From Albidovulum litorale (GTDB lineage Bacteria; Pseudomonadota; Alphaproteobacteria; Rhodobacterales; Rhodobacteraceae): 64,000 nt of DNA. The notes beneath the pieces were generated by a model, which saw only the letters and a list, made by a program, of their open reading frames with translations, was not told the origin of the DNA and ran no database searches. The DNA lies in contig NZ_JAOWKZ010000003.1 in assembly GCF_025751495.1 (NCBI RefSeq), positions 310,001 through 374,000 of the forward strand, given 5' to 3'. Position 1 is the stretch's first letter; every line of letters starts with the position of its first letter. The position numbers and the translations under genes were made by a program. Shown in pieces: positions 14,113 through 24,418 of the stretch.

Positions 14113-15495
14113 ATGCCCCCCAAATTCGGCACGAGTGGCCTGCGCGGCCTTGTCAGCGACCTGACCGACGGACTTTGCGCAGGTTATGTGCGCGCCTTTC
14201 TGCAGGTCACGCCCCATTCCGGGCAGTTGATGATCGGCCGCGACCTGCGACCGTCGTCGGAACGGATCGCGGCGGCGGTCGCGGCGGCGGCGGCGGCAGA
14301 GGGTCTGACACCGGTCGATTGCGGGGCCCTGCCGACACCGGCGCTGGCGCTTGCGGCGATGGAGGCCGGAGCGCCGTCGGTAATGGTGACCGGCAGCCAT
14401 ATCCCGGCTGATCGAAACGGGCTGAAGTTCTACACCGCCAATGGCGAGATCACCAAGGCGGACGAGGCAGCGATCCTGCGGGTCTATGCGGGCGAAACCG
14501 ACTGCCCGCCGGTCGAGGCGGTCGAGGACCCCGAGGCCGTGCCCAGCTATCGCCGCCGTTATCTGAGCTACCTTGGCCGCAGCGCGCTGTCGGGGCTCAG
14601 GATCGGCGTCTATGAACACAGTTCGGTAGCCCGCGATCTGCTGTCCGAGACGTTGCGATTTCTCGGGGCCGAAACGGTGTCTCTTGGCCGGTCCGAGACG
14701 TTCATTCCGGTCGATACCGAGGCCGTCGATACCGCAACGCGGGACATGCTCGCAGGATGGGCTGCGGAACACGGCCTGACCGCGATCGTCTCGACCGACG
14801 GCGATGCTGATCGCCCGCTGATGGCCGATGCGGCCGGACGTGTGATCCCCGGCGACGTTCTGGGCGTTCTGACTGCAAGCCTAATCGGGGCCGATACCGT
14901 GGTGACGCCGGTTTCCTCCAATACCATGATCGAGCTTTCGGGCCGGTTCACCCGGGTTGTCCGCACGAAAATCGGGTCCCCCTATGTGATCGCCGCGATG
15001 CAGTCGGCCCCGAAAAGCGCCCGTGTCGCCGGGTTCGAGGCCAATGGCGGCTTTCTTCTGGGCTTCGCCGCCGAGGGACGCGGCGGCCTGATCGCGCCCC
15101 TGGCCACGCGTGACGCGTTCCTGCCGATCCTCCTGCCGCTCGCCGAATGTGTGCGGCGCAGTGTCGGGCTGGCCGATCTAGTGGCGGCCCTGCCCGCTCG
15201 GGCAACCGCCAGTGACCGTCTGACCGGGGTTGAAACCGAAAAATCGCTGGCGCTGGTCGAGCTGCTGTCGACCGAGCCGGAGGCACGGCAGGTGTTTTTC
15301 GACGGCAACGGCCCAGAAGCCGCGATCGACAAGACCGATGGCCTGCGCGTGACCTTCCAGTCAGGCAACATCCTGCACCTGCGTCCCTCGGGCAACGCGC
15401 CGGAACTGCGCTGTTACGCCGAGGCGGAAGATACCGAAACCGCCGCCGAACTGGTGCAAAAAACGCTGGAAGTTGCGCGCGAGGCCATCGGCTAA
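14113..15495 (+). CDS. Phosphomannomutase/phosphoglucomutase
   Basis: This is a 460-residue alpha-D-phosphohexomutase. The phosphoserine loop is TGSHIPADRNG with Ser95 (TGSH in place of the common TASH), the metal loop is STDGDADRP with D229/D231/D233, and the sugar/phosphate-binding loops are FEANGGFLLG and RPSGNAPELRCY. It interconverts mannose-6-P and mannose-1-P (and possibly glucose phosphates), feeding manC. A GCG-rich run encodes an alanine-rich helix at residues 53-62. The ATG at 14113 begins at the conserved MPPKFGTSGLRG; an in-frame ATG at 14062 would add 17 residues. The 289-nt divergent gap to manC contains no other ORF and presumably holds both promoters. Confidence 0.9.
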   Translation: MPPKFGTSGLRGLVSDLTDGLCAGYVRAFLQVTPHSGQLMIGRDLRPSSERIAAAVAAAAAAEGLTPVDCGALPTPALALAAMEAGAPSVMVTGSHIPADRNGLKFYTANGEITKADEAAILRVYAGETDCPPVEAVEDPEAVPSYRRRYLSYLGRSALSGLRIGVYEHSSVARDLLSETLRFLGAETVSLGRSETFIPVDTEAVDTATRDMLAGWAAEHGLTAIVSTDGDADRPLMADAAGRVIPGDVLGVLTASLIGADTVVTPVSSNTMIELSGRFTRVVRTKIGSPYVIAAMQSAPKSARVAGFEANGGFLLGFAAEGRGGLIAPLATRDAFLPILLPLAECVRRSVGLADLVAALPARATASDRLTGVETEKSLALVELLSTEPEARQVFFDGNGPEAAIDKTDGLRVTFQSGNILHLRPSGNAPELRCYAEAEDTETAAELVQKTLEVAREAIG

Positions 15496-15510: not shown

Positions 15511-16512
15511 TCACGTCCGGGACGGGGTTTTCACCATGACCCTGTCCGGCGTGTGGATCACCTTTTCCCCGGCCACGAAATCATCCAGCGAGAAGGTCCA
15601 GATTCCACGCGGCCAGCGCAGATCCATATGGCGCAAACGGGGCCGATAGACGGCCGTGTAAAGCGTGCCGAAACCGCGCGAAAACGCTGTCGAATAAAGC
15701 GGCGGGCGCAGGAAGGCGCCGATGAACTTCTCCTCAGGCTCCACATGCAGGGTTAGCCGTTGAAGCAGGAAACGTTCCCTTTCCACCGTCGCGGTCATGC
15801 GGGCATGGTCAGTCCATTCGACCGACTTCTGGTGGTTCGTCGCGACCGCCGCATGGGTGATCTGGGCAGGCCGGTCCGGTGCCATCAGAGCCGTCAGAAA
15901 GTGGCGTTTGGCGTCAAGCACCGTGACATTGTAGCTCATATGCGTCGGGATGCGGGCCAGCGCCTTGCCCGCCTCTTCCGCCGTCGTACAGGTTTCCAAC
16001 ACGTAACGCAGGATCAGCGGCACGCCGAACCCCTCGCCCACGACCTGCCGCCCACCGAAGGTCAGCGATACCGCAAGCCCGGCGTCGTTCATCCCGTCCA
16101 CAAGCCCCCAGAGCCCGTCCGACGTGCCAAGCACCCGGCGCCCACGCCAGTTGGTGCGCATGATGAGGCGGTCGAACGCCGCAGGGCTGTAATCATAGTT
16201 CCGCACCATGACCGGTTCGCGCCCCGGCCAGATCGCCTGCGAACAGCCCGAAAGATATGGCGGAGGTCGCCAGAAACTCAGGAACCGGGCGGCATGATCG
16301 CCCCCACCCGCAAGTTCACAAAGCTGGTCATAGAGCCCGACCAGTTCCGGCATATGCGCCTCAAGCGCCTTGCGGCTTTCCCAATACGGCGGCCGCGGAC
16401 CTTCACCCTCGCGCAGCCACCAGCGGTGGTAATCCGGCCAATACTCATGGAAAAGCGCGGCCCAAACCGGGCCAAGCTCCTCGATATCGACGGCGCGCCA
16501 GAGATAGTCCAT
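15511..16512 (-). CDS. C45-family autoproteolytic acyltransferase/hydrolase
   Basis: This 333-residue Ntn-fold protein is related to acyl-CoA:6-aminopenicillanate acyltransferase. The nucleophile is most likely C90 in YLSGCSQAIW, with self-cleavage predicted between G89 and C90. The following RNYDY and the LVDGMNDAGLAVSLTFGG segment are typical of the family. Members make or break amide bonds on small molecules; relatives include hydrolases of beta-alanyl amines. It is the last gene of a four-gene minus-strand operon, 32 nt after the ATP-grasp gene. Substrate is unknown, and either acyl transfer or amide hydrolysis is possible. Confidence 0.8.
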   Translation of the reverse strand: MDYLWRAVDIEELGPVWAALFHEYWPDYHRWWLREGEGPRPPYWESRKALEAHMPELVGLYDQLCELAGGGDHAARFLSFWRPPPYLSGCSQAIWPGREPVMVRNYDYSPAAFDRLIMRTNWRGRRVLGTSDGLWGLVDGMNDAGLAVSLTFGGRQVVGEGFGVPLILRYVLETCTTAEEAGKALARIPTHMSYNVTVLDAKRHFLTALMAPDRPAQITHAAVATNHQKSVEWTDHARMTATVERERFLLQRLTLHVEPEEKFIGAFLRPPLYSTAFSRGFGTLYTAVYRPRLRHMDLRWPRGIWTFSLDDFVAGEKVIHTPDRVMVKTPSRT

Positions 16513-16544
16513 TGCAGCTATGTGCCGGGGCTTGCCCCCGAAGT

Positions 16545-18005
16545 CTACATGATCTTGAAGGCAGGATCGGCAAAGGCCGGTCCCGCTTCAGCTGACGGCA
16601 GCGGCCGGGCGGCAAAGCCCTGCTTGATGCCGTGGATCCACTTCTTGGCCCTTTCGTTCAGCTTGAACCCATTGGTCATCGAGCGTCCGCGGGTGACGAG
16701 AATACCGAGGTCGGCCCCTTCATAGCGATAATCACCGGGCTTCAGGATACGCAGGAAGAAGGCCTCGTTTTCGGATTCAACCGCGCGGCGGTGATAGTCG
16801 AAGCGGTCATAGACGACCCGGCCATCCTCCAGCATCCGGTAGATGCCCGATTGCGGGGCATGGGTGACGATGTCCACCGAATCCTCGGTATGCTTGATCA
16901 CCATCTGCGACCACGAGTCGATCATCGACTGATCGGCCCATCGGGCGTTCAGTTCCTCCACATCTAGATGGAACTTTTTCTTTGAGAATTCTAGGAGATG
17001 GAAGAGGAACAAGGGCGCATCGGCATGGGCAAAGGCCGCGTGGTTGGTCATCGACGACGCCCCGGTGATGCGGGGGTTCAACTCGCCCAGCCAAATCTCG
17101 CCCGTCTTTTTGTCGATCAGGAAATCAAGCTCGAAATAGCCGCGATAGCCTTCTTTCCGAAGCTGTTCGCCGAACTGGAACGTGAGTTCCCGCGCGCGTT
17201 GACGGGTCTTCGGCGGGAAGGCGGTGGAGAAGATTTCGTTGCCGCACCAGCCGCCACGATAAGGGGTGAGTTCCTTGAATCCCACAAGCTCGGTCATCAG
17301 CGGGCCGACGATGGTGCCCTCTTTCGTGGCGCAGGCCTCGATGGCAGACCCCCGGCAATCGATCCGCTTCATGATCTTTATTTCGCCCTCACCGACAATC
17401 TCATGCTCATGACGGCGGAAATCGGCCTCGGACTTGATGAAGAACGTGGTATGGCCGCTGTCACCGAAGGCCGATTGCAGTACCAGGTCATGACCGAGCC
17501 CGGCCTTGTCACAGATCTTCTTCAGGTGATCGTAGCTTTTCACCTCCGACAAAGTGTTCGGCACCGATGGCACGCCCGCCTTGTTGCCGATGCGGACCGT
17601 CTCGATCTTGTTGTCGCACTTGGTCCGAAGCTTCGCCTTCGGGAACCAGACCTCACCGCCCAGTTCCTTGGCTAACCGCTCGGTTTCCTCGTCAAACATC
17701 AGGAAGACGAATTTCGGCTTGCCACCACGCCGCTTGATCAGGTCGATCACCTCCTTGTGCTGCAGAAGGTAGTTGTTGATCTCTTCGATCGACTGGAATT
17801 CCGCATGCGGCTGCTCGGAGGGGCAGAAGACGTTCGGATGGCGGCCATCATAGCAATCGATGTAACATATGTATTTGAAATTCTTGCACCATTCGTCGAT
17901 GCCCAGCAGATTGAAGTTCGTCGCGGATACGAAATAGATCGGGTCTTCGTTGCGGTGAAAGTGCCGGCGGATTTCCGAGATGTTCTTCAGTTCGCTGGTC
18001 GCCAT
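16545..18005 (-). CDS. ATP-grasp ligase (biotin carboxylase-like)
   Basis: This is a 486-residue ATP-grasp protein. Visible parts are a pre-ATP-grasp N-lobe (residues 1-125), a substrate/ATP lobe with LVLQSAFGDSGHTTF (175-188) and IKIMKRIDCRGSA, and the metal/phosphate site FELDFLID followed by GEIWLGELNPRITGAS with E308 and N310. Such enzymes activate a carboxylate as acyl-phosphate and join it to an amine or thiol. No biotin carrier partner or carboxylation motif is nearby, so amide-bond formation is more likely than carboxylation. The start has GGGAG 6 nt upstream and lies 13 nt after the decarboxylase stop. Residue use is Lys- and Asn-rich compared with its neighbours. Confidence 0.8.
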   Translation of the reverse strand: MATSELKNISEIRRHFHRNEDPIYFVSATNFNLLGIDEWCKNFKYICYIDCYDGRHPNVFCPSEQPHAEFQSIEEINNYLLQHKEVIDLIKRRGGKPKFVFLMFDEETERLAKELGGEVWFPKAKLRTKCDNKIETVRIGNKAGVPSVPNTLSEVKSYDHLKKICDKAGLGHDLVLQSAFGDSGHTTFFIKSEADFRRHEHEIVGEGEIKIMKRIDCRGSAIEACATKEGTIVGPLMTELVGFKELTPYRGGWCGNEIFSTAFPPKTRQRARELTFQFGEQLRKEGYRGYFELDFLIDKKTGEIWLGELNPRITGASSMTNHAAFAHADAPLFLFHLLEFSKKKFHLDVEELNARWADQSMIDSWSQMVIKHTEDSVDIVTHAPQSGIYRMLEDGRVVYDRFDYHRRAVESENEAFFLRILKPGDYRYEGADLGILVTRGRSMTNGFKLNERAKKWIHGIKQGFAARPLPSAEAGPAFADPAFKIM

Positions 18006-18018
18006 TTGATACTCCCTG

Positions 18019-20757
18019 TTATTCCGCCGCTTCCGGCAGTTTTTGTCCCATGCGCTTTGCCAGCGCCTCTTCCGTAAAGACCCTCAGGCCCAGATCCGCG
18101 CGGTATCCGTGGATTTCGTTGACATCGAGCGCCCGCATGAAGGCGAGAATCTCCGAACTAACCACCTGCCCCGGCACGAGGATCGGGAAGCCCGGCGGAT
18201 ATGGGATGATGAACGAGGCCGACACAACTTCGCGCCCGCTTTCCATCGCCGCCTTGATCGAGCCGTCAAGCTCCAGATAGTCGCAGTTCTTGTCGTCGTA
18301 GCTGAGGAAGAACGCCGTTCGGATGTCGCCCTCAGTCGTCTCGCCGCCCGCCCGGAACGCATCATGGAAGCGCGAGAAATCGGGCAGCGGCGGCAGGTCT
18401 TCCATCAGCGCCTTGACGCGATGCTCGAATGCGCGCCGCTCCATGTTCGACGCGTCATCAAGCCGGTCGTCGAGTTCCTTGGCGATCTCGACCAGAACCT
18501 CGATCAGATAGGCGACCGAGGACCGCGTGGTGCCGATATTCGTCATGAACAGAACGGTGTTCCGCGAGGTCTTGTTGATCTGGATGCCGTATTTGTCCAT
18601 CAGGATCTGGGTCTTGAACGTATCCCCGTCCCAGCCGGTGCCGCCGACGGCCAGCGTCACGCGGGTGGCGTCCAGCACGAACTCGTCCTTCTCCCAGCAT
18701 TCCCAGATATCGGTCCAGCCCTGATGCGGGTCGTAGTAACTTGCCACACCGCTTTCGCGATATTCGTCGGGGATCATGTCGCCGGCCGTCAACACCTTGA
18801 AATATTTTTGCAAAAGCGGATGGGTGGAGATCGCCTTGCGCATAGACATGGCGGCCTCGACCTGACGCTGGACGAACTCGAACCCTTCCAGTTCCACCTG
18901 CCTGCGACCCACGTCGAGGGACGCAATGATTTGGTAATTCGGGCTGGTGGAGGTGTGGGTCATATAGGCTTCGTGGAACGACTGCTCCACCTCGCCCTTG
19001 AAATCCTGATCGTTGACATGGATCATCGAGCCCTGTCTGAGAGAGGTCAGCGTCTTGTGGGTCGACTGCGTTGTATAGACCCGGACGCGGGCATCCGGTG
19101 GCGGGATGAGGCGCGTGTTCAGTAACGTCTCTTCATCTGCGTCCTTCAGCTTCTCGGCCTGTTTTTCATAGGCCTTGGCGTGTTCGGGCGACTTCAGCCA
19201 TTCACGCAGCAAATTGGCGGCATTCATGCCGGTCCGCTGGCGATAGGTCGGGCCGAAGCGGGCGAAGGCGAACCACGCCTCATCCCAAAGGAAGATGAGG
19301 TCGGGCTTGATGGCGAGGCATTCCTCCATCACCCGTTCGACATTGTAAACCACGCCGTCAAAGGTGCAGTTGGTCAGCAAAAGCATCCGCACCTGATCAA
19401 GTTTGCCCGCCGCCTTCAGCTTCAGAAGCTGGTGCTTGATCTCTTTCAGCGGCACCGCGCCGTACATCGAGTATTCGTTCAGGGGATAGCTGTCGAGGTA
19501 CACGACCTGCGCACCCGCCAGCACCATGCCGTAGTGGTGAGACTTGTGGCAATCGCGGTCGATGAGCACAATATCCCCAGGTCTGACAAGGGCTTGCACC
19601 ACTATCTTGTTACAAGTCGAGGTGCCGTTGGTGGCAAAAAAGGTCTGCTTCGAACCGAAGGCCCGCGCTGCCAGTTCCTGTGCCTTCTTGATCGGACCGT
19701 GGGGTTCAAGAAGGCTGTCAAGGCCACCGGACGTCGCCGAGGTTTCCGCAAGGAAGATGTTGGGCCCGTAGAAGGCCCCCATGTCCTGAATCCAGTGCGA
19801 CCGCGAGATCGATTTACCGCGTGAGATCGGCATGGCGTGGAAAACGCCGGTCGGCTGCTTGGAATAGTTCACGAGCGCGGTGAAGAACGGCGTATTGTAA
19901 CGCGACTGGACGCCCCGCAGGATGTTCAGATGCAGTTCCTGAAAATCTTCCTGATTGTAGAAGACCCGGCGGCAGATGCCGAGGTCCAGGCCGGCGATTT
20001 CCTCGACCGAACGGTCTGTGACCAGATAGGCGTCGAGCTCGGGCCGAACCGACGCGATCAGGCGGCAAAGTTCGGGCCCGTAATTCTCAGGTTTGAGTCC
20101 TTCCAACCCCTCGGCACCACCGGCGCGGTTGAGGTAACGCTTCAGGATCGGCAGGTCGACGCCCGATTTCAGCCGCAGGCCCGGCCGCACGACGACCGCC
20201 TGTACGTTATGGTTGAACAGTATACCGATCAGCGCGTCCTCGAGGCTCGGCACAACCACGGTTTCGTACATGAACGGATCTTCGAAGCGCCGCATCCGGG
20301 CGACGTTGTTCTTCAGCCAGCGTTCCTGATGTTCGTTGAGGTCATCGACGATCATCACCTCGAAATAGGGCTTGGTGAGGGCCCGCGCCTCCGGCGACAG
20401 CAGCGCCTCATCCTCGTGGTCTTCGGCGTCGGCGCTTTCGCGATCCAAAGGAATATGACGGCGGCGATAGGCACCGGTGGTCAGAGCCCGCGTCACCCGG
20501 TGTGTGCCAAAGGCCACGTCGTCGAGGCTGCCATGCTCGAATTGCCGCCTAAGTTGCTCGAAAGCCTGCATTCCAGGAAACGCCCAATAGCGTTCGATCA
20601 GGGCAAGCGATGCGAACAATTCCTCGATCTGCTTGCGCAGGGCAGCCGATTTCTTGCCCTGCGGATCACGGCTCAGCGCCCCGGTCGCCTCGCGCAGCGC
20701 GCTCCAACGGTCCGAACGCAGCTGGACCGCCGAGTAATAATCATTGACCGATTGCAT
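18019..20757 (-). CDS. PLP-dependent Orn/Lys/Arg-type decarboxylase with long N-terminal extension
   Basis: This is a 912-residue fold-type I PLP enzyme. Residues 1-125 form a helical extension. Residues 130-250 resemble the CheY-like wing domain of bacterial basic-amino-acid decarboxylases (YFEVMIVDDL). The PLP domain follows, with TNGTSTCNK (377-384), Asp492 in LIFLWDEAWFAF and the Schiff-base Lys568 in TQSTHKTLTSLRQGS, then a C-terminal domain. Family enzymes remove CO2 from ornithine, lysine or arginine to give diamines. Typical lengths are 715-785, so this one is unusually long. It is flanked by a nitrilase homolog (77-nt gap) and an ATP-grasp ligase (13-nt gap). The amino-acid substrate cannot be told from sequence alone. 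Confidence 0.85.
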   Translation of the reverse strand: MQSVNDYYSAVQLRSDRWSALREATGALSRDPQGKKSAALRKQIEELFASLALIERYWAFPGMQAFEQLRRQFEHGSLDDVAFGTHRVTRALTTGAYRRRHIPLDRESADAEDHEDEALLSPEARALTKPYFEVMIVDDLNEHQERWLKNNVARMRRFEDPFMYETVVVPSLEDALIGILFNHNVQAVVVRPGLRLKSGVDLPILKRYLNRAGGAEGLEGLKPENYGPELCRLIASVRPELDAYLVTDRSVEEIAGLDLGICRRVFYNQEDFQELHLNILRGVQSRYNTPFFTALVNYSKQPTGVFHAMPISRGKSISRSHWIQDMGAFYGPNIFLAETSATSGGLDSLLEPHGPIKKAQELAARAFGSKQTFFATNGTSTCNKIVVQALVRPGDIVLIDRDCHKSHHYGMVLAGAQVVYLDSYPLNEYSMYGAVPLKEIKHQLLKLKAAGKLDQVRMLLLTNCTFDGVVYNVERVMEECLAIKPDLIFLWDEAWFAFARFGPTYRQRTGMNAANLLREWLKSPEHAKAYEKQAEKLKDADEETLLNTRLIPPPDARVRVYTTQSTHKTLTSLRQGSMIHVNDQDFKGEVEQSFHEAYMTHTSTSPNYQIIASLDVGRRQVELEGFEFVQRQVEAAMSMRKAISTHPLLQKYFKVLTAGDMIPDEYRESGVASYYDPHQGWTDIWECWEKDEFVLDATRVTLAVGGTGWDGDTFKTQILMDKYGIQINKTSRNTVLFMTNIGTTRSSVAYLIEVLVEIAKELDDRLDDASNMERRAFEHRVKALMEDLPPLPDFSRFHDAFRAGGETTEGDIRTAFFLSYDDKNCDYLELDGSIKAAMESGREVVSASFIIPYPPGFPILVPGQVVSSEILAFMRALDVNEIHGYRADLGLRVFTEEALAKRMGQKLPEAAE

Positions 20758-20834
20758 CGCATCATCCCCGTCAGTGACGGCAACTGATGCCTTTTGCGGT
20801 CCTTCCGCGAGCCTTGCGGCGTTCCGCGAGGGGC

Positions 20835-21824
20835 TCAGCCGCTCGCTGTCTTGTCCGCCAAGGGCGGTATGTAACCCACGTCCGACCCAATCGGACCCGG
20901 ACTGATGTTACCGCCAGCATGCGACATCCTGTCACCAGCCACAAGCGGCTTTTCCAGACCAGCGCGAGAGCCCTGACGCGGCATTTCCAGCGGCCCGAGC
21001 GTCTTCAGATACTCGTCGGCACCGCTCGACCGGTCATAGACGGAGAACTCCGCATCCCTGTCGCGGAAGCTTTTCAACACCTGACCCAACCCCTTGATCC
21101 CGGTTTCCCGCTGGCGGCGGACAAGCGACAGGTCGACCTCGATCGGGAACATGTCCTCCTGCCCCGCAGATTGGTGCAGCACGGTGGCCGAGGGGTCGAC
21201 GATCAGCGAGCGACCCACGCCCCCTGCCCCAAGTCCGTTCACGTCGATGACGTAGCACTGGAACTGTGCCGCCGTGGCGCGAGCGATGGCAAGCTCCGCA
21301 TCCCGGTCGGTAGTGCCGGTCAGGACCGGGTGCAGCAACACCTCAACCCCCGCGCTCGTCAGTTGCCGCGTGGTTTCAGGGAACCAGATATCATAGCAGA
21401 TCGACAGGCCAAAGCGCCCGACATTCGGCACATCAAAGATGCAGAACTCTGTCCCCGCCTCGACCTCGATCTCATAGGGCCGGAACGGGAACATCTTGCG
21501 ATATTTGGTAACTATCTGTCCGTCCGGATCGATCACGGCCGATGTGTTGTAGATCCGACCATCTGAGGTCTTTTCGAACATTGACCCCGGGATCAGCCAG
21601 ATCTTGTGCTTCTTCGCCGCTGCGCGAAATTGGTCCAACGCCTCGTTTTCAAAAGGCTGGGCGAAGCGGTGCAGCGGGCCATAGGGCGCAAGTTCGGAAA
21701 ACAGCACCATCTCGGTCCATGGAAACCGCGCCATCAGGACGTCGATCCGGTGGATCATGCCTTCGACATTGGATTGCAGCGCGTTCACGTACATCTGCAC
21801 GCCGGCGATTGCGAATGGGGTCAT
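20835..21824 (-). CDS. Nitrilase-superfamily C-N hydrolase
   Basis: This 329-residue carbon-nitrogen hydrolase has the full catalytic triad: E44 in LFSELAPYGP, K110 in KYRKMFPF and C143 in LSICYDIWFPE. Members hydrolyse amides, ureido groups or nitriles (for example N-carbamoylputrescine) or transfer acyl groups. The last 60 residues are an unusual low-complexity tail rich in Gly, Pro and Ser. It is the first gene of the minus-strand operon that continues with the decarboxylase, ATP-grasp and C45 genes, which suggests work on a decarboxylated amino acid or its amide. Confidence 0.85.
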   Translation of the reverse strand: MTPFAIAGVQMYVNALQSNVEGMIHRIDVLMARFPWTEMVLFSELAPYGPLHRFAQPFENEALDQFRAAAKKHKIWLIPGSMFEKTSDGRIYNTSAVIDPDGQIVTKYRKMFPFRPYEIEVEAGTEFCIFDVPNVGRFGLSICYDIWFPETTRQLTSAGVEVLLHPVLTGTTDRDAELAIARATAAQFQCYVIDVNGLGAGGVGRSLIVDPSATVLHQSAGQEDMFPIEVDLSLVRRQRETGIKGLGQVLKSFRDRDAEFSVYDRSSGADEYLKTLGPLEMPRQGSRAGLEKPLVAGDRMSHAGGNISPGPIGSDVGYIPPLADKTASG

Positions 21825-22103: not shown

Positions 22104-23339
22104 ATGCTCCGCGATTCCGACATCCTCTCGCAGCTTCTCTCCCGCCGCCCGAAAACCTCGCTCGGCCGCGACTTCTACACCGCCCCCGAGGTTTATGACG
22201 CCGATATGCGGCTGATCTGGACCCGCGACTGGGTCTATGTTGTCTCGGCGCCCGAGATCGCGAAGCCCGGCAATTACGTCACCGTACAGATCGGCGACTA
22301 TTCGGTGATCGTCGTGCGCGGCAATGACAACATCATCCGCGCGTTCCACAATTCCTGCCGCCATCGCGGCAGCCGCATCTGTCAAAGCGTCAAGGGCTCG
22401 AACCCGAAGCTCGTCTGCCCCTATCACCAGTGGACCTACGAACTTGACGGCCGTCTCCTCTGGGCCCGCGACATGGGGCCGGATTTCGACGCCACCAAAC
22501 ACGGGCTGAAACCGGTTCACTGCGACGTTGCCGCTGGTATGGTCTTCATCTGCCTCGCTGAAACCGCACCCGACTTTGCGCCGGTGAAAGCCGAAGCTCT
22601 GCGCTATACCGCACCGCACGGACTGGATGATCTGAAGGTCGCCGCCCAGTCCACGATCATCGAGAACGGCAACTGGAAGCTGGTGCTGGAAAACAACCGC
22701 GAATGCTACCATTGCTCGGGCTCGCATCCCTCGCTGTGCCGCACGTTCAACGACGACCCGAACCTCGTTGGCGCCGATGACTCGGTCTCGTCGCCCGTCG
22801 GCGCGGCCCATGTCGCACGTTGTGAAGCGGCCGGCCTGCCGTCGAAATACGTCATTGACCCGAACGAACAGTGGCGTTTTGTCCGCATCCCCTTCGTCGG
22901 CGACGCGGTCAGCTACACGATGGACGGCAAGGCGGCGGTCAGGAAAATGCTGAAGGGCATGCCTTTTGCCAATGCGGGCACGCTCCTCTTCTTCCACTAC
23001 CCGAACACCTGGAACCACTTCCTGTCGGATCACATCCTGAACTTCCGCGTCCTGCCGGTCAGTGCGACGGAAACCCAGGTCACGACCACCTGGCTCGTGC
23101 ACAAGGATGCCGTCGAGGGCGAGGATTACGACCTCAAGCGCCTGACCGAGGTCTGGGAAGCGACCAACGACGAGGACCGCATCGTCGTCGAGCAGAACCA
23201 GCTTGGCATCAATTCGCCCGCATACGAACCCGGCCCCTATTCCGACCTGCAGGAAAGCGGCGTGATCCAGTTCATCGACTGGTATGTCGCGACACTGCAG
23301 AACCGGATGGTCGGCCGCAAAGTCATCGCCGCGGAGTAA
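22104..23339 (+). CDS. gbcA: Rieske oxygenase, glycine betaine demethylase-type, alpha subunit
   Basis: This is a 411-residue ring-hydroxylating-type Rieske oxygenase. The Rieske [2Fe-2S] ligands are C85/H87 (SCRHRGSR) and C105/H108 (CPYHQW). The mononuclear iron site lies in ENNRECYHCSGSH with H203 and H208. The sequence most resembles GbcA, which with GbcB oxidatively demethylates glycine betaine to dimethylglycine and formaldehyde. Other quaternary-amine demethylases (stachydrine, carnitine) share this fold, so the substrate is inferred. The partner reductase starts 5 nt downstream. Confidence 0.85.
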   Translation: MLRDSDILSQLLSRRPKTSLGRDFYTAPEVYDADMRLIWTRDWVYVVSAPEIAKPGNYVTVQIGDYSVIVVRGNDNIIRAFHNSCRHRGSRICQSVKGSNPKLVCPYHQWTYELDGRLLWARDMGPDFDATKHGLKPVHCDVAAGMVFICLAETAPDFAPVKAEALRYTAPHGLDDLKVAAQSTIIENGNWKLVLENNRECYHCSGSHPSLCRTFNDDPNLVGADDSVSSPVGAAHVARCEAAGLPSKYVIDPNEQWRFVRIPFVGDAVSYTMDGKAAVRKMLKGMPFANAGTLLFFHYPNTWNHFLSDHILNFRVLPVSATETQVTTTWLVHKDAVEGEDYDLKRLTEVWEATNDEDRIVVEQNQLGINSPAYEPGPYSDLQESGVIQFIDWYVATLQNRMVGRKVIAAE

Positions 23340-23344
23340 GCGCC

Positions 23345-24418
23345 ATGATCCCGATGCCGCGCGAGGATACGCCGCTCTGGACCGATGCAGAGCCCTTGGA
23401 ATGCGTGATGGTCGTCCCCGAGGCGCCGAACGTGAAGACATTCGTCTTCCGTCCGCCTTCGGGGGCTACCTTCCTCTTCCGCGCCGGGCAGTTCATCACG
23501 CTGGAACTGCCCGTGAAGGGCGGGCCGCTCTACCGGACCTATACGATCTCGTCGAGCCCGACCTCGAACGTCTACCTTTCGATCACCGTGAAGGCGCAGC
23601 CCAATAGTGAGGGTTCGCGCTGGCTGGTCGAAAACCTCGTGCCCGGCATGCGGCTGAACGTGAAGGGGCCCGGCGGCGTCTTCCACCTGCCGCGCCAGCC
23701 CAATGGCAAGTACCTTTTCATCTCGGCGGGTTCAGGCGTCACGCCAATGATGTCCATGGCCACGTTCCTTTGGGAACGCGGTGAGGAACCCGATATCAGC
23801 TTCATCCAATGCGCCAACAAGCCGTCGGAACTGATTTTCCGCAAACGGCTCGAATACATGGCGGGACGGGTGCGCGGCCTCCGGCTGAACTTCGTCGTGG
23901 CCGAAGAAGACCCCTATGAAGTCTGGACCGGCTATCGCGGCCATTTCAACCAGCTCATGCTGGGCCTGATGACACCCGACTACCTCGACCGTGATGTCTA
24001 TTGCTGCGGGCCTGAGGGCTTCATGACGGGGGTGCGTGAAACGCTCTTGTCGCTTGGCTACGACATGGAACGCTACCACCAGGAGACGTTCCAGGCCCCG
24101 GTCATGCGGGTCGAGGATATCGAGGTCCACGAGGATGTGGTGCCGCAGGAAACCGCGAAGGCCGAAATCGCCTTCGTCAATTCCGGCGTGACCACGGAAT
24201 GCACCGAGACCGATACGGTTCTGGCGGTCGCCAAGGCATCGGGCCTCAACATGCCATCGGGGTGCAACTTCGGCGTCTGCGGCACCTGCAAGGTCAAGAC
24301 CCGTTCGGGTCAGGTTCACATGGTCCATAACGGCGGGATCAGTGAAGAGGATATCGAGGCCGGTTACATCCTCGCCTGCTGCTCGCGCCCGCTGGGCCGG
24401 GTTGAGGTCGAACTCTGA
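23345..24418 (+). CDS. gbcB: Ferredoxin-type reductase component of the betaine demethylase
   Basis: This 357-residue oxidoreductase combines an FAD-binding domain (RAGQFITLELP, then LYRTYTISSSP), an NAD(P)-binding domain (FISAGSGVTPMMSM, and VYCCGPEGFM) and a C-terminal plant-type [2Fe-2S] ferredoxin domain with GCNFGVCGTC and a fourth cysteine in LACCSRP. It passes electrons from NAD(P)H to the Rieske subunit encoded immediately upstream. The length and domain order match GbcB. Confidence 0.88.
   Translation: MIPMPREDTPLWTDAEPLECVMVVPEAPNVKTFVFRPPSGATFLFRAGQFITLELPVKGGPLYRTYTISSSPTSNVYLSITVKAQPNSEGSRWLVENLVPGMRLNVKGPGGVFHLPRQPNGKYLFISAGSGVTPMMSMATFLWERGEEPDISFIQCANKPSELIFRKRLEYMAGRVRGLRLNFVVAEEDPYEVWTGYRGHFNQLMLGLMTPDYLDRDVYCCGPEGFMTGVRETLLSLGYDMERYHQETFQAPVMRVEDIEVHEDVVPQETAKAEIAFVNSGVTTECTETDTVLAVAKASGLNMPSGCNFGVCGTCKVKTRSGQVHMVHNGGISEEDIEAGYILACCSRPLGRVEVEL

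What the first reader, a model, noticed from the sequence alone, without database searches (positions are those of the whole stretch)
15511..21824. Four-gene operon: nitrilase, PLP decarboxylase, ATP-grasp ligase, C45 acyltransferase/hydrolase - candidate pathway for a decarboxylated amino-acid amide
Seen: four co-oriented genes with gaps of 77, 13 and 32 nt, each carrying intact catalytic residues (E44/K110/C143; K568; E308/N310; C90). Established: these families respectively hydrolyse C-N bonds, decarboxylate basic amino acids to diamines, form amides from carboxylates with ATP, and transfer or hydrolyse amides. Inference: together they could make, mature and recycle a small amide of a diamine or polyamine. 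I know of no described pathway with this exact set. There is no transporter, peptidyl carrier or regulator in the operon, so the product may act intracellularly.
Basis: partly seen in the sequence, partly recalled or inferred. Interest (0 to 1): 0.8.

Follow-up and report, generated by a model that had tools for sequence, protein, structure and literature searches.

The report
Conserved four-gene omega-amino acid amide operon
Four neighbouring enzyme genes travel together in many marine and salt-loving bacteria, and their genomic company suggests that they turn an acidic amino acid such as glutamate or aspartate into a small amine-acid like GABA and then build and break an amide of it, a pathway whose product is still unknown.

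Summary
In detail: four intact minus-strand genes (CN-hydrolase NIT, PLP decarboxylase DEC, ATP-grasp GRASP, C45 enzyme), gaps 77, 13 and 32 nt. Order and strand are kept in 75 of 80 close relatives; in 149 family genomes close GRASP and close DEC occur in the same 26. The basic-amino-acid/diamine inference is not supported: where LdcI has Glu526, DEC has Asn728, with Arg732 nearby (Asn in 117 of 117, Arg in 116 of 117 distinct copies), while 9 of 9 ordinary family decarboxylases keep Glu. A separate DEC clade without GRASP lies near aspartate-alanine antiporter-like genes in 11 of 11 loci. Frequent neighbours are a glutamate-type TAXI-TRAP importer (36 of 80) and GABA-type transaminases (32 of 80). 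In an unnamed family, most likely Halomonadaceae, the genes sit inside the ectoine-degradation operon (21 of 22 loci). GRASP is named biotin carboxylase but lacks its QVE motif. Best reading: Glu or Asp to GABA or beta-alanine (DEC), amide formation on it (GRASP), hydrolysis or transfer (C45, NIT). The substrate class is fairly supported; the amide and its purpose are inference.

The parts
20835..21824 (-). NIT: carbon-nitrogen hydrolase, first gene; triad E44 (21693-21695), K110 (21495-21497), C143 (21396-21398)
   Evidence: best NCBIfam matches (deaminated-GSH amidase, formamidase, N-carbamoylputrescine amidase) are far below cut-off
18019..20757 (-). DEC: PLP decarboxylase, homologue of Rv2531c, in the Orn/Lys/Arg decarboxylase superfamily
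   Evidence: (9n0o, 831 bits over 14-902)
19054..19056 (-). DEC Lys568, Schiff-base lysine in STHK
18562..18576 (-). DEC N728-K-T-S-R732: Asn in place of the LdcI Glu526-type acidic residue, and Arg732
16545..18005 (-). GRASP: ATP-grasp enzyme annotated as biotin carboxylase
17070..17084 (-). GRASP E308-L-N310-P-R312, followed by ITGASS and not by the QVE of biotin carboxylases
15511..16512 (-). C45: Ntn-type acyltransferase/amidohydrolase precursor, last gene
16243..16245 (-). C45 Cys90 after Gly89, predicted self-cleavage site and nucleophile
   Evidence: Cys90 invariant in 30 of 30 rows of A3; fold match to isopenicillin N acyltransferase

Best explanation
The operon is an omega-amino-acid module. 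DEC removes the alpha-carboxylate of an acidic amino acid (glutamate to GABA, or aspartate to beta-alanine). GRASP then uses ATP to form an amide on that omega-amino acid, most likely by activating its carboxylate and joining it to an amine or amino acid. C45, after cutting itself at Gly89/Cys90, and NIT hydrolyse or transfer that amide. Shown: four intact, closely spaced co-oriented genes, strict co-occurrence, the altered DEC site, the neighbours. Inferred from site and neighbours: the acidic substrate. Inferred from family knowledge only: amide formation by GRASP and cleavage by C45 and NIT. Unknown: the partner of the omega-amino acid and the purpose.
For: DEC site: Asn728 in 117 of 117 and Arg732 in 116 of 117 distinct copies covering the site (128 of 128 and 127 of 128 counting repeats), against Glu in AdiA-like and LdcI chains and in 9 of 9 ordinary OKR decarboxylases of the family (9 taken of the 16 low-identity matches). 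A separate DEC clade without GRASP (support 100/100): an AspT-like antiporter gene in the stretch in 11 of 11 loci, against 0 of 148 GRASP loci. AspT is over the curated cut-off in L225 (598.9 and 614.7 against 546.95), with aspartate 4-decarboxylase (716.3 against 321), and annotated aspT in L250-L253; in L256-L261 it rests on tblastn at 29-56%. In 36 of 80 loci a TAXI-TRAP pair lies near; the binding protein tested matches VcGluP (8s4j, 391 bits) and Y45, S75, Q93, H123, E125 are kept in 36 of 36. GABA-type transaminase at 50% or more in 32 of 80, any of three transaminases in 41 of 80; the GabT tested passes the GABA transaminase cut-off (547.6 against 506.65). Family f51, most likely Halomonadaceae: inside the ectoine operon, whose end product is aspartate (recalled), in 21 of 22 loci. 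Loci without adjacent DEC lie in operons read as arginine to 4-guanidinobutyrate to GABA (L194, L201, L203) and, in L051, beside caprolactamase alpha (1227.4 against 1000) and GABA transaminase (543.5 against 506.65).
Against: Nothing here shows any activity. S. meliloti SM11 DEC has Pro at 732, and Rv2531c keeps the Asn but has Ile at 732, so Arg732 is not universal. Roseateles XES5 has a DEC elsewhere on the plasmid that carries its DEC-less GRASP locus, so DEC may act in trans and 'replacement' of DEC is unproven. The window's own operon has no TAXI, GabT or ectoine gene beside it; the best own copies of the first two are elsewhere (GabT 56%; TAXI 57%). 28 of 80 loci have none of the six probed partners at 50% identity, some because the stretch is short. 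L155 holds the module without ectoine genes. The tree warns of long branches meeting and its root is arbitrary. The GRASP model is poor (pLDDT 58.9) and its fold ranking is a tie of carboxylases and ligases. VcGluP's sixth ligand residue, M201, is kept in 0 of 36. 2,4-Diaminobutyrate, an ectoine intermediate, is another possible DEC substrate.
Confidence: 0.42

Rival explanations
1. One reading: DEC makes a diamine (cadaverine, putrescine or agmatine) from Lys, Orn or Arg; GRASP makes an amide of it; C45 and NIT recycle it, as gamma-glutamyl-putrescine is handled in the Puu pathway.
For: PF01276 Orn/Lys/Arg decarboxylase match; PuuR-like regulator and GabT nearby; arginine-pathway neighbours in Shinella.
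Against: Asn for Glu at the distal-group position; AspT-like partners of the separate clade; the six OKR NCBIfam models that match do so far below cut-off; glutamate-type importer.
Confidence: 0.12
2. DEC is a 2,4-diaminobutyrate (or N-acetyl-diaminobutyrate) decarboxylase that drains ectoine breakdown to 1,3-diaminopropane, which GRASP, C45 and NIT then conjugate and release.
For: The module lies between an Lrp/AsnC-like regulator gene and the DoeC-like gene in 21 of 22 f51 loci; a GRASP-free DEC lies near ectB in S. meliloti (L255); L251 has a DEC of the AspT clade in an ectoine locus.
Against: Among the 80 Rhodobacteraceae-type loci only two ectoine-gene-like hits, DoeX-like 46% in L116 and EutB-like 53% in L117; glutamate-type importer and AspT links; loss of the acidic residue.
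Confidence: 0.15
3. NIT is a glutaminase-like ammonia donor for GRASP (as the nitrilase domain is for NAD synthetase) and the pair amidates an acid; C45 then exchanges the amide on a biosynthetic product, which may be secreted as a signal.
For: NIT has a weak match to NAD synthase (40 bits); C45 has the fold of isopenicillin N acyltransferase; ABC transporters lie near on some plasmids.
Against: No NIT in the stretch in loci that keep GRASP and C45 (L157, L158, L195, L196, L198, L199); the recurrent neighbours are catabolic enzymes and importers.
Confidence: 0.12
4. Unlinked catabolic enzymes kept together only by shared regulation, with no common intermediate.
For: Gene order differs between families: NIT-DEC-GRASP-C45 against NIT-GRASP-C45-DEC; NIT or DEC can be missing from the stretch.
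Against: 26 of 26 co-occurrence of GRASP and DEC in one family, and adjacency in alphaproteobacteria, in Cupriavidus and in unnamed families of other classes.
Confidence: 0.12

Closest known systems
Rv2531c, 'probable amino acid decarboxylase' of M. tuberculosis (PDB 9n0n, 9n0o, 9n0p)
   Same: Full-length homologue of DEC (831 bits, residues 14-902); same Asn at the site; its activity is called unclarified in a 2026 census (PMC12910592, passages seen)
   Different: Ile where DEC has Arg732; its gene neighbours were not examined
Orn/Lys/Arg decarboxylases (LdcI, AdiA, ODC)
   Same: PF01276 domain, Schiff-base Lys, PYPPG motif
   Different: Asn and Arg at the distal-group site instead of Glu; below the cut-offs of the six models that match
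AspT aspartate-alanine antiporter plus decarboxylase exchange systems
   Same: A separate clade of DEC homologues lies near AspT-like genes
   Different: No AspT in any of 148 GRASP loci
Biotin carboxylase (NF005096, PRK06524)
   Same: Annotation family of GRASP (770.6 bits); E-x-N-P-R motif
   Different: No QVE after NPR; no biotin carrier or transferase among the four genes
Isopenicillin N acyltransferase family (C45; 2x1c)
   Same: Best fold match of the C45 model (E 2.4e-11, TM 0.67, 15% identity); Gly-Cys site
   Different: Substrate unknown; 15% identity
Ebony/Tan beta-alanyl-amine cycle and carnosine synthase (recalled, no call)
   Same: As I recall, Tan is a C45-type hydrolase of beta-alanyl amides, and carnosine synthase is an ATP-grasp enzyme that uses beta-alanine or GABA
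   Different: Resemblance of logic only; Ebony is not ATP-grasp; no homology tested
Puu gamma-glutamylation pathway (recalled)
   Same: Ligase plus amide hydrolase around GABA; PuuR-like regulator near the operon in relatives
   Different: PuuA is of the glutamine synthetase fold, not ATP-grasp

Membership tests
Orn/Lys/Arg decarboxylases acting on basic amino acids | OKR major domain and PLP lysine | tested here: met
   PF01276 1.2e-77; K568 in STHK
Orn/Lys/Arg decarboxylases acting on basic amino acids | Acidic residue at LdcI Glu526 (a postulated substrate-binding residue, PMC5607190, passages seen) | tested here: not met
   Asn728 in 117 of 117 distinct copies; Glu in 9 of 9 ordinary members
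Orn/Lys/Arg decarboxylases acting on basic amino acids | Score over a curated model for a named substrate | tested here: not met
   best 220 bits against cut-off 968
Rv2531c-type decarboxylase | Full-length homology | tested here: met
   831 bits, 14-902
Rv2531c-type decarboxylase | Shared substrate | not testable with these tools
   the substrate of neither is known (PMC12910592)
Biotin carboxylase | Score over NF005096 | tested here: met
   770.6 against 684; the name is an annotation, not a tested function
Biotin carboxylase | Bicarbonate-site QVE after NPR (role of the motif recalled) | tested here: not met
   pyruvate carboxylase NPRIQVEH against GRASP NPRITGASS
Biotin carboxylase | Biotin carrier or carboxyltransferase partner in the operon | tested here: not met
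   none among the four genes
ATP-grasp amide ligase | ATP-grasp fold | tested here: inconclusive
ATP-grasp amide ligase | Amide product | not testable with these tools
   -
C45 autoproteolytic acyltransferase/hydrolase | Score over NF040521 and the cysteine | tested here: met
   175.1 against 85; C90 invariant in 30 of 30
C45 autoproteolytic acyltransferase/hydrolase | Isopenicillin N acyltransferase-like fold | tested here: met
   2x1c first of the list, E 2.4e-11, TM 0.67
Nitrilase superfamily | CN_hydrolase domain and Glu-Lys-Cys | tested here: met
   PF00795 3e-33; E44, K110, C143
Ectoine degradation pathway | Always part of the doe/eut operon | tested here: not met
   21 of 22 f51 loci, but not the 80 Rhodobacteraceae-type loci

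The most novel reading that the evidence does not exclude
An undescribed omega-amino-acid conjugation cycle: a fold-type-I glutamate or aspartate decarboxylase of the Rv2531c family feeds GABA or beta-alanine to an ATP-grasp ligase that makes a GABA- or beta-alanyl-amide, and a C45 and a nitrilase-type enzyme take it apart. It is a bacterial counterpart in logic to the Ebony/Tan cycle, slotted into glutamate, arginine, lactam and ectoine metabolism according to where the omega-amino acid comes from.
Probability: 0.28. Interest if true: 0.78.

Novelty: new variant of a known kind. Interest (0 to 1): 0.6.

Why it matters
It offers a testable substrate class (acidic, not basic) for a decarboxylase family whose structurally solved member has no known activity (PMC12910592, passages). 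It puts four uncharacterised genes inside the ectoine-degradation operon of many halophiles, where their job is unexplained. It questions the 'biotin carboxylase' name carried by a whole family. It also points to a separate predicted decarboxylase-antiporter pair (a DEC homologue plus AspT).

Tried and rejected
Literature: searches (nitrilase, ATP-grasp, lysine decarboxylase, gene cluster, acyltransferase; C45 family, biotin carboxylase, decarboxylase; ATP-grasp, lysine decarboxylase, 6-aminopenicillanic acid; 5-guanidino-2-oxopentanoate decarboxylase, 4-guanidinobutyrate, D-arginine, Rhizobium; 3 of 4; aspartate-alanine antiporter, aspartate decarboxylase, beta-alanine, fold type I; 3 of 4; biotin carboxylase, Halomonas, ectoine degradation, operon, carbon-nitrogen hydrolase; 4 of 5) found no paper; (ectoine, doeA, decarboxylase, nitrilase) listed two, judged off topic from the listing and not opened. 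Only open-licence PMC papers are held, so 'not described' means not found there. Papers: PMC12910592, PMC5607190, PMC8503589 and PMC11574862 were seen as passages only; the cryo-EM paper on Rv2531c is not held.

Considered and dropped: NIT hydrolysing an amide made by an oxidative decarboxylation in DEC (NIT goes with GRASP and C45 where DEC is not adjacent, and DEC occurs without NIT); GRASP as biotin carboxylase (no QVE); an agmatine/carbamoylputrescine route (I did not search for agmatine deiminase). Promoter- and terminator-like counts were near the shuffled level. The GRASP model did not separate ligase from carboxylase. Seven C45 paralogue loci (L226-L232, 38-46% by tblastn) without a GRASP hit in the stretch gave no clear substrate hint.

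Rows dropped before counts: DEC alignments that did not cover the site, tblastn pieces covering under 40 or 50% of the reference; one search also drops matches under 50% identity. The 148 loci hold some genomes twice. Of 32 plasmid records with GRASP I opened 11; of 39 with the L225 DEC query I opened 6. Family f51 has no name in the tools: I take it for Halomonadaceae because the DoeA of L153 is 89% identical to that of Halomonas sp. PA16-9, the next best plasmid record being 68%.
Full report
OBSERVATION. The four genes are real, intact and on the minus strand: NIT 20835-21824, DEC 18019-20757, GRASP 16545-18005, C45 15511-16512, with gaps of 77, 13 and 32 nt. Family matches are CN hydrolase, OKR decarboxylase, NF005096 'biotin carboxylase' and C45 proenzyme. 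Upstream a divergent Rieske oxygenase gene begins at 22104; downstream a convergent ORF ends at 15495, which reads to me as a sugar-phosphate mutase.

CONSERVATION. Of these 80, 75 keep NIT-DEC-GRASP-C45 in order and strand, 3 are cut by contig ends, 1 lacks NIT and 1 is rearranged. In 149 genomes of the family, GRASP at 80% identity or more is in 26, and DEC at 74% or more is in exactly those 26. Three further genomes have only a divergent GRASP (45-48%), G119 has both kinds, and G028 has a fragment. Across the phylum the family is sparse: 11 of 398 genomes. Some of these belong to other classes of the phylum, and plasmids of Rhizobium, Sinorhizobium, Shinella, Roseateles and Cupriavidus carry it.

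ECTOINE OPERON. Family f51 is not named by the tools; I take it for Halomonadaceae because the DoeA of L153 is 89% identical to that of Halomonas sp. PA16-9, against 68% for the next record. In f51, 29 of 121 genomes have GRASP, 28 over cut-off. I fetched 22 loci: 21 have an Lrp/AsnC-like regulator (DoeX position, my reading), NIT, GRASP, C45, DEC, a DoeC-like and a DoeD-like gene in a row, most with DoeA, DoeB or EutB in the stretch too; L224 does not. In L153 DoeA (670.2 against 613), DoeB (491.4 against 402.7) and EutB (465.6 against 413) pass curated cut-offs, and in L152 EhuR passes (596 against 480); the DoeC-like gene is below the SSADH cut-off (607.6 against 646.35). DoeA over cut-off is in 103 of 121 genomes. 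Reading side by side, all 28 genomes with over-cut-off GRASP have DoeA on the same contig within about 12 kb, and 75 have DoeA without such a GRASP. The module is an optional insert in this operon.

OTHER SETTINGS. Plasmids of Shinella, Roseateles XES5 and Sinorhizobium RAC02: GRASP-C45 inside an operon of amino acid permease, agmatinase, 5-guanidino-2-oxopentanoate decarboxylase, aldehyde dehydrogenase, D-amino acid dehydrogenase and alanine racemase, with NIT divergent and no DEC in the stretch. This reads as arginine to 4-guanidinobutyrate to GABA (pathway recalled). XES5 has a DEC elsewhere on that plasmid, so the lack at the locus need not be a loss. The divergent form in the window's family (L051, L053) lies with GABA transaminase, a succinate-glutarate CoA-transferase-like gene (533.1, below the cut-off of 750) and TRAP genes; L051 also has caprolactamase alpha over cut-off. 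Rhizobium leguminosarum plasmids carry DEC-GRASP-C45, in L195 next to nif genes. Cupriavidus oxalaticus has a MocR-type regulator, NIT, DEC, GRASP, C45 and a DctA/GltP-like symporter that is below the model cut-offs. On a tree of 29 GRASP rows at least 4 changes in the presence of an adjacent DEC are needed.

DECARBOXYLASE. The nearest solved protein is Rv2531c (831 bits), whose activity is unclarified (PMC12910592, passages). The printed alignment puts Asn728 opposite the Glu of LdcI and of an AdiA-type enzyme; counted along it, the LdcI residue is Glu526, a postulated substrate-binding residue (PMC5607190, passages). Asn is in 117 of 117 and Arg732 in 116 of 117 distinct copies (128 and 127 of 128 with repeats); S. 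meliloti SM11 has Pro, Rv2531c Ile. Nine of nine ordinary OKR decarboxylases from the family have Glu. A separate clade (100/100, with a long-branch warning and an arbitrary root) has no GRASP in the stretch; in 11 of 11 loci an AspT-like gene is there (L225, L250-L253, L256-L261), against 0 of 148 GRASP loci. L225 has two AspT genes over cut-off and aspartate 4-decarboxylase. L251 has its DEC and AspT beside eutB and eutC. Two DEC copies of the main type without GRASP in the stretch (L254, L255) lack AspT. Li et al. 2021 hold that actinobacterial relatives of these decarboxylases are probably not polyamine-related (PMC8503589, passages).

IMPORTER AND TRANSAMINASE. In 36 of 80 loci a TAXI binding protein and a fused TRAP membrane protein lie near, and a UspA-like gene in 24. 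The binding protein of L061 matches VcGluP (8s4j, 391 bits). Of six ligand residues studied in PMC11574862 (passages), Y45, S75, Q93 and E125 are kept in 36 of 36, Y200 in 31 of 36, M201 in 0 of 36. Y45 and Q93 are the two whose loss cost most affinity there. At 50% identity or more, a GABA-type transaminase is in 32 of 80 loci, any of three transaminases in 41, and any of six probed partners in 52. The window's own operon has none of them beside it; the best own GabT and TAXI copies are elsewhere in the genome.

GRASP AND C45. GRASP has E308-L-N310-P-R312 but T-G-A where pyruvate carboxylase has Q-V-E. Its model is poor (58.9) and the fold ranking is a tie, so ligase chemistry is inference. 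The C45 model is better (84.4); the best fold match is isopenicillin N acyltransferase.

READING. The simplest common factor is an omega-amino acid: GABA or beta-alanine made by DEC from glutamate or aspartate; GABA from arginine in the Shinella type; 5-aminovalerate or the like from lactams in L051. GRASP is then the conjugating step, C45 and NIT the release or transfer. I put about 0.7 on an acidic substrate for DEC and about 0.4 on the whole scheme. What the omega-amino acid is joined to, and why, no evidence here decides.

Noticed in passing
L225, L250-L253, L256-L261: DEC homologues without GRASP lie near AspT-like antiporter genes in 11 of 11 loci, 3 of them (L225, L253, L256) also with an aspartate 4-decarboxylase-like gene: a predicted acidic amino acid decarboxylase-antiporter pair.
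   Followed up: partly
L117 (WNWL01000005.1, labelled Oceanobacillus sp. HTM 045): A record labelled as a Gram-positive holds the operon at 84% identity; perhaps a mislabelled or mixed assembly. MAGs labelled Woeseia (L106) and Hyphomicrobiales (L067, L071) may be similar cases.
   Followed up: no
L226, L231, L232: C45 paralogues without a GRASP hit in the stretch lie near a conserved small ORF (its product holds INLG[FY]VDLGRIDLLVQEG), and L232 also has a NIT homologue.
   Followed up: no
window 22104-24418, plus strand: Divergent Rieske oxygenase (492.7 bits to glycine betaine monooxygenase GbcA, cut-off 670), followed by a reductase-like ORF; possibly another betaine substrate.
   Followed up: no
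plasmid hits H25-H32: Eight Sinorhizobium plasmid records match GRASP over only 39-47% of its length, so the module may be decaying on some symbiosis plasmids.
   Followed up: no
L046 / L129 (Seohaeicola zhoushanensis contig): About 2.4 kb with several ORFs lies between GRASP and C45.
   Followed up: no
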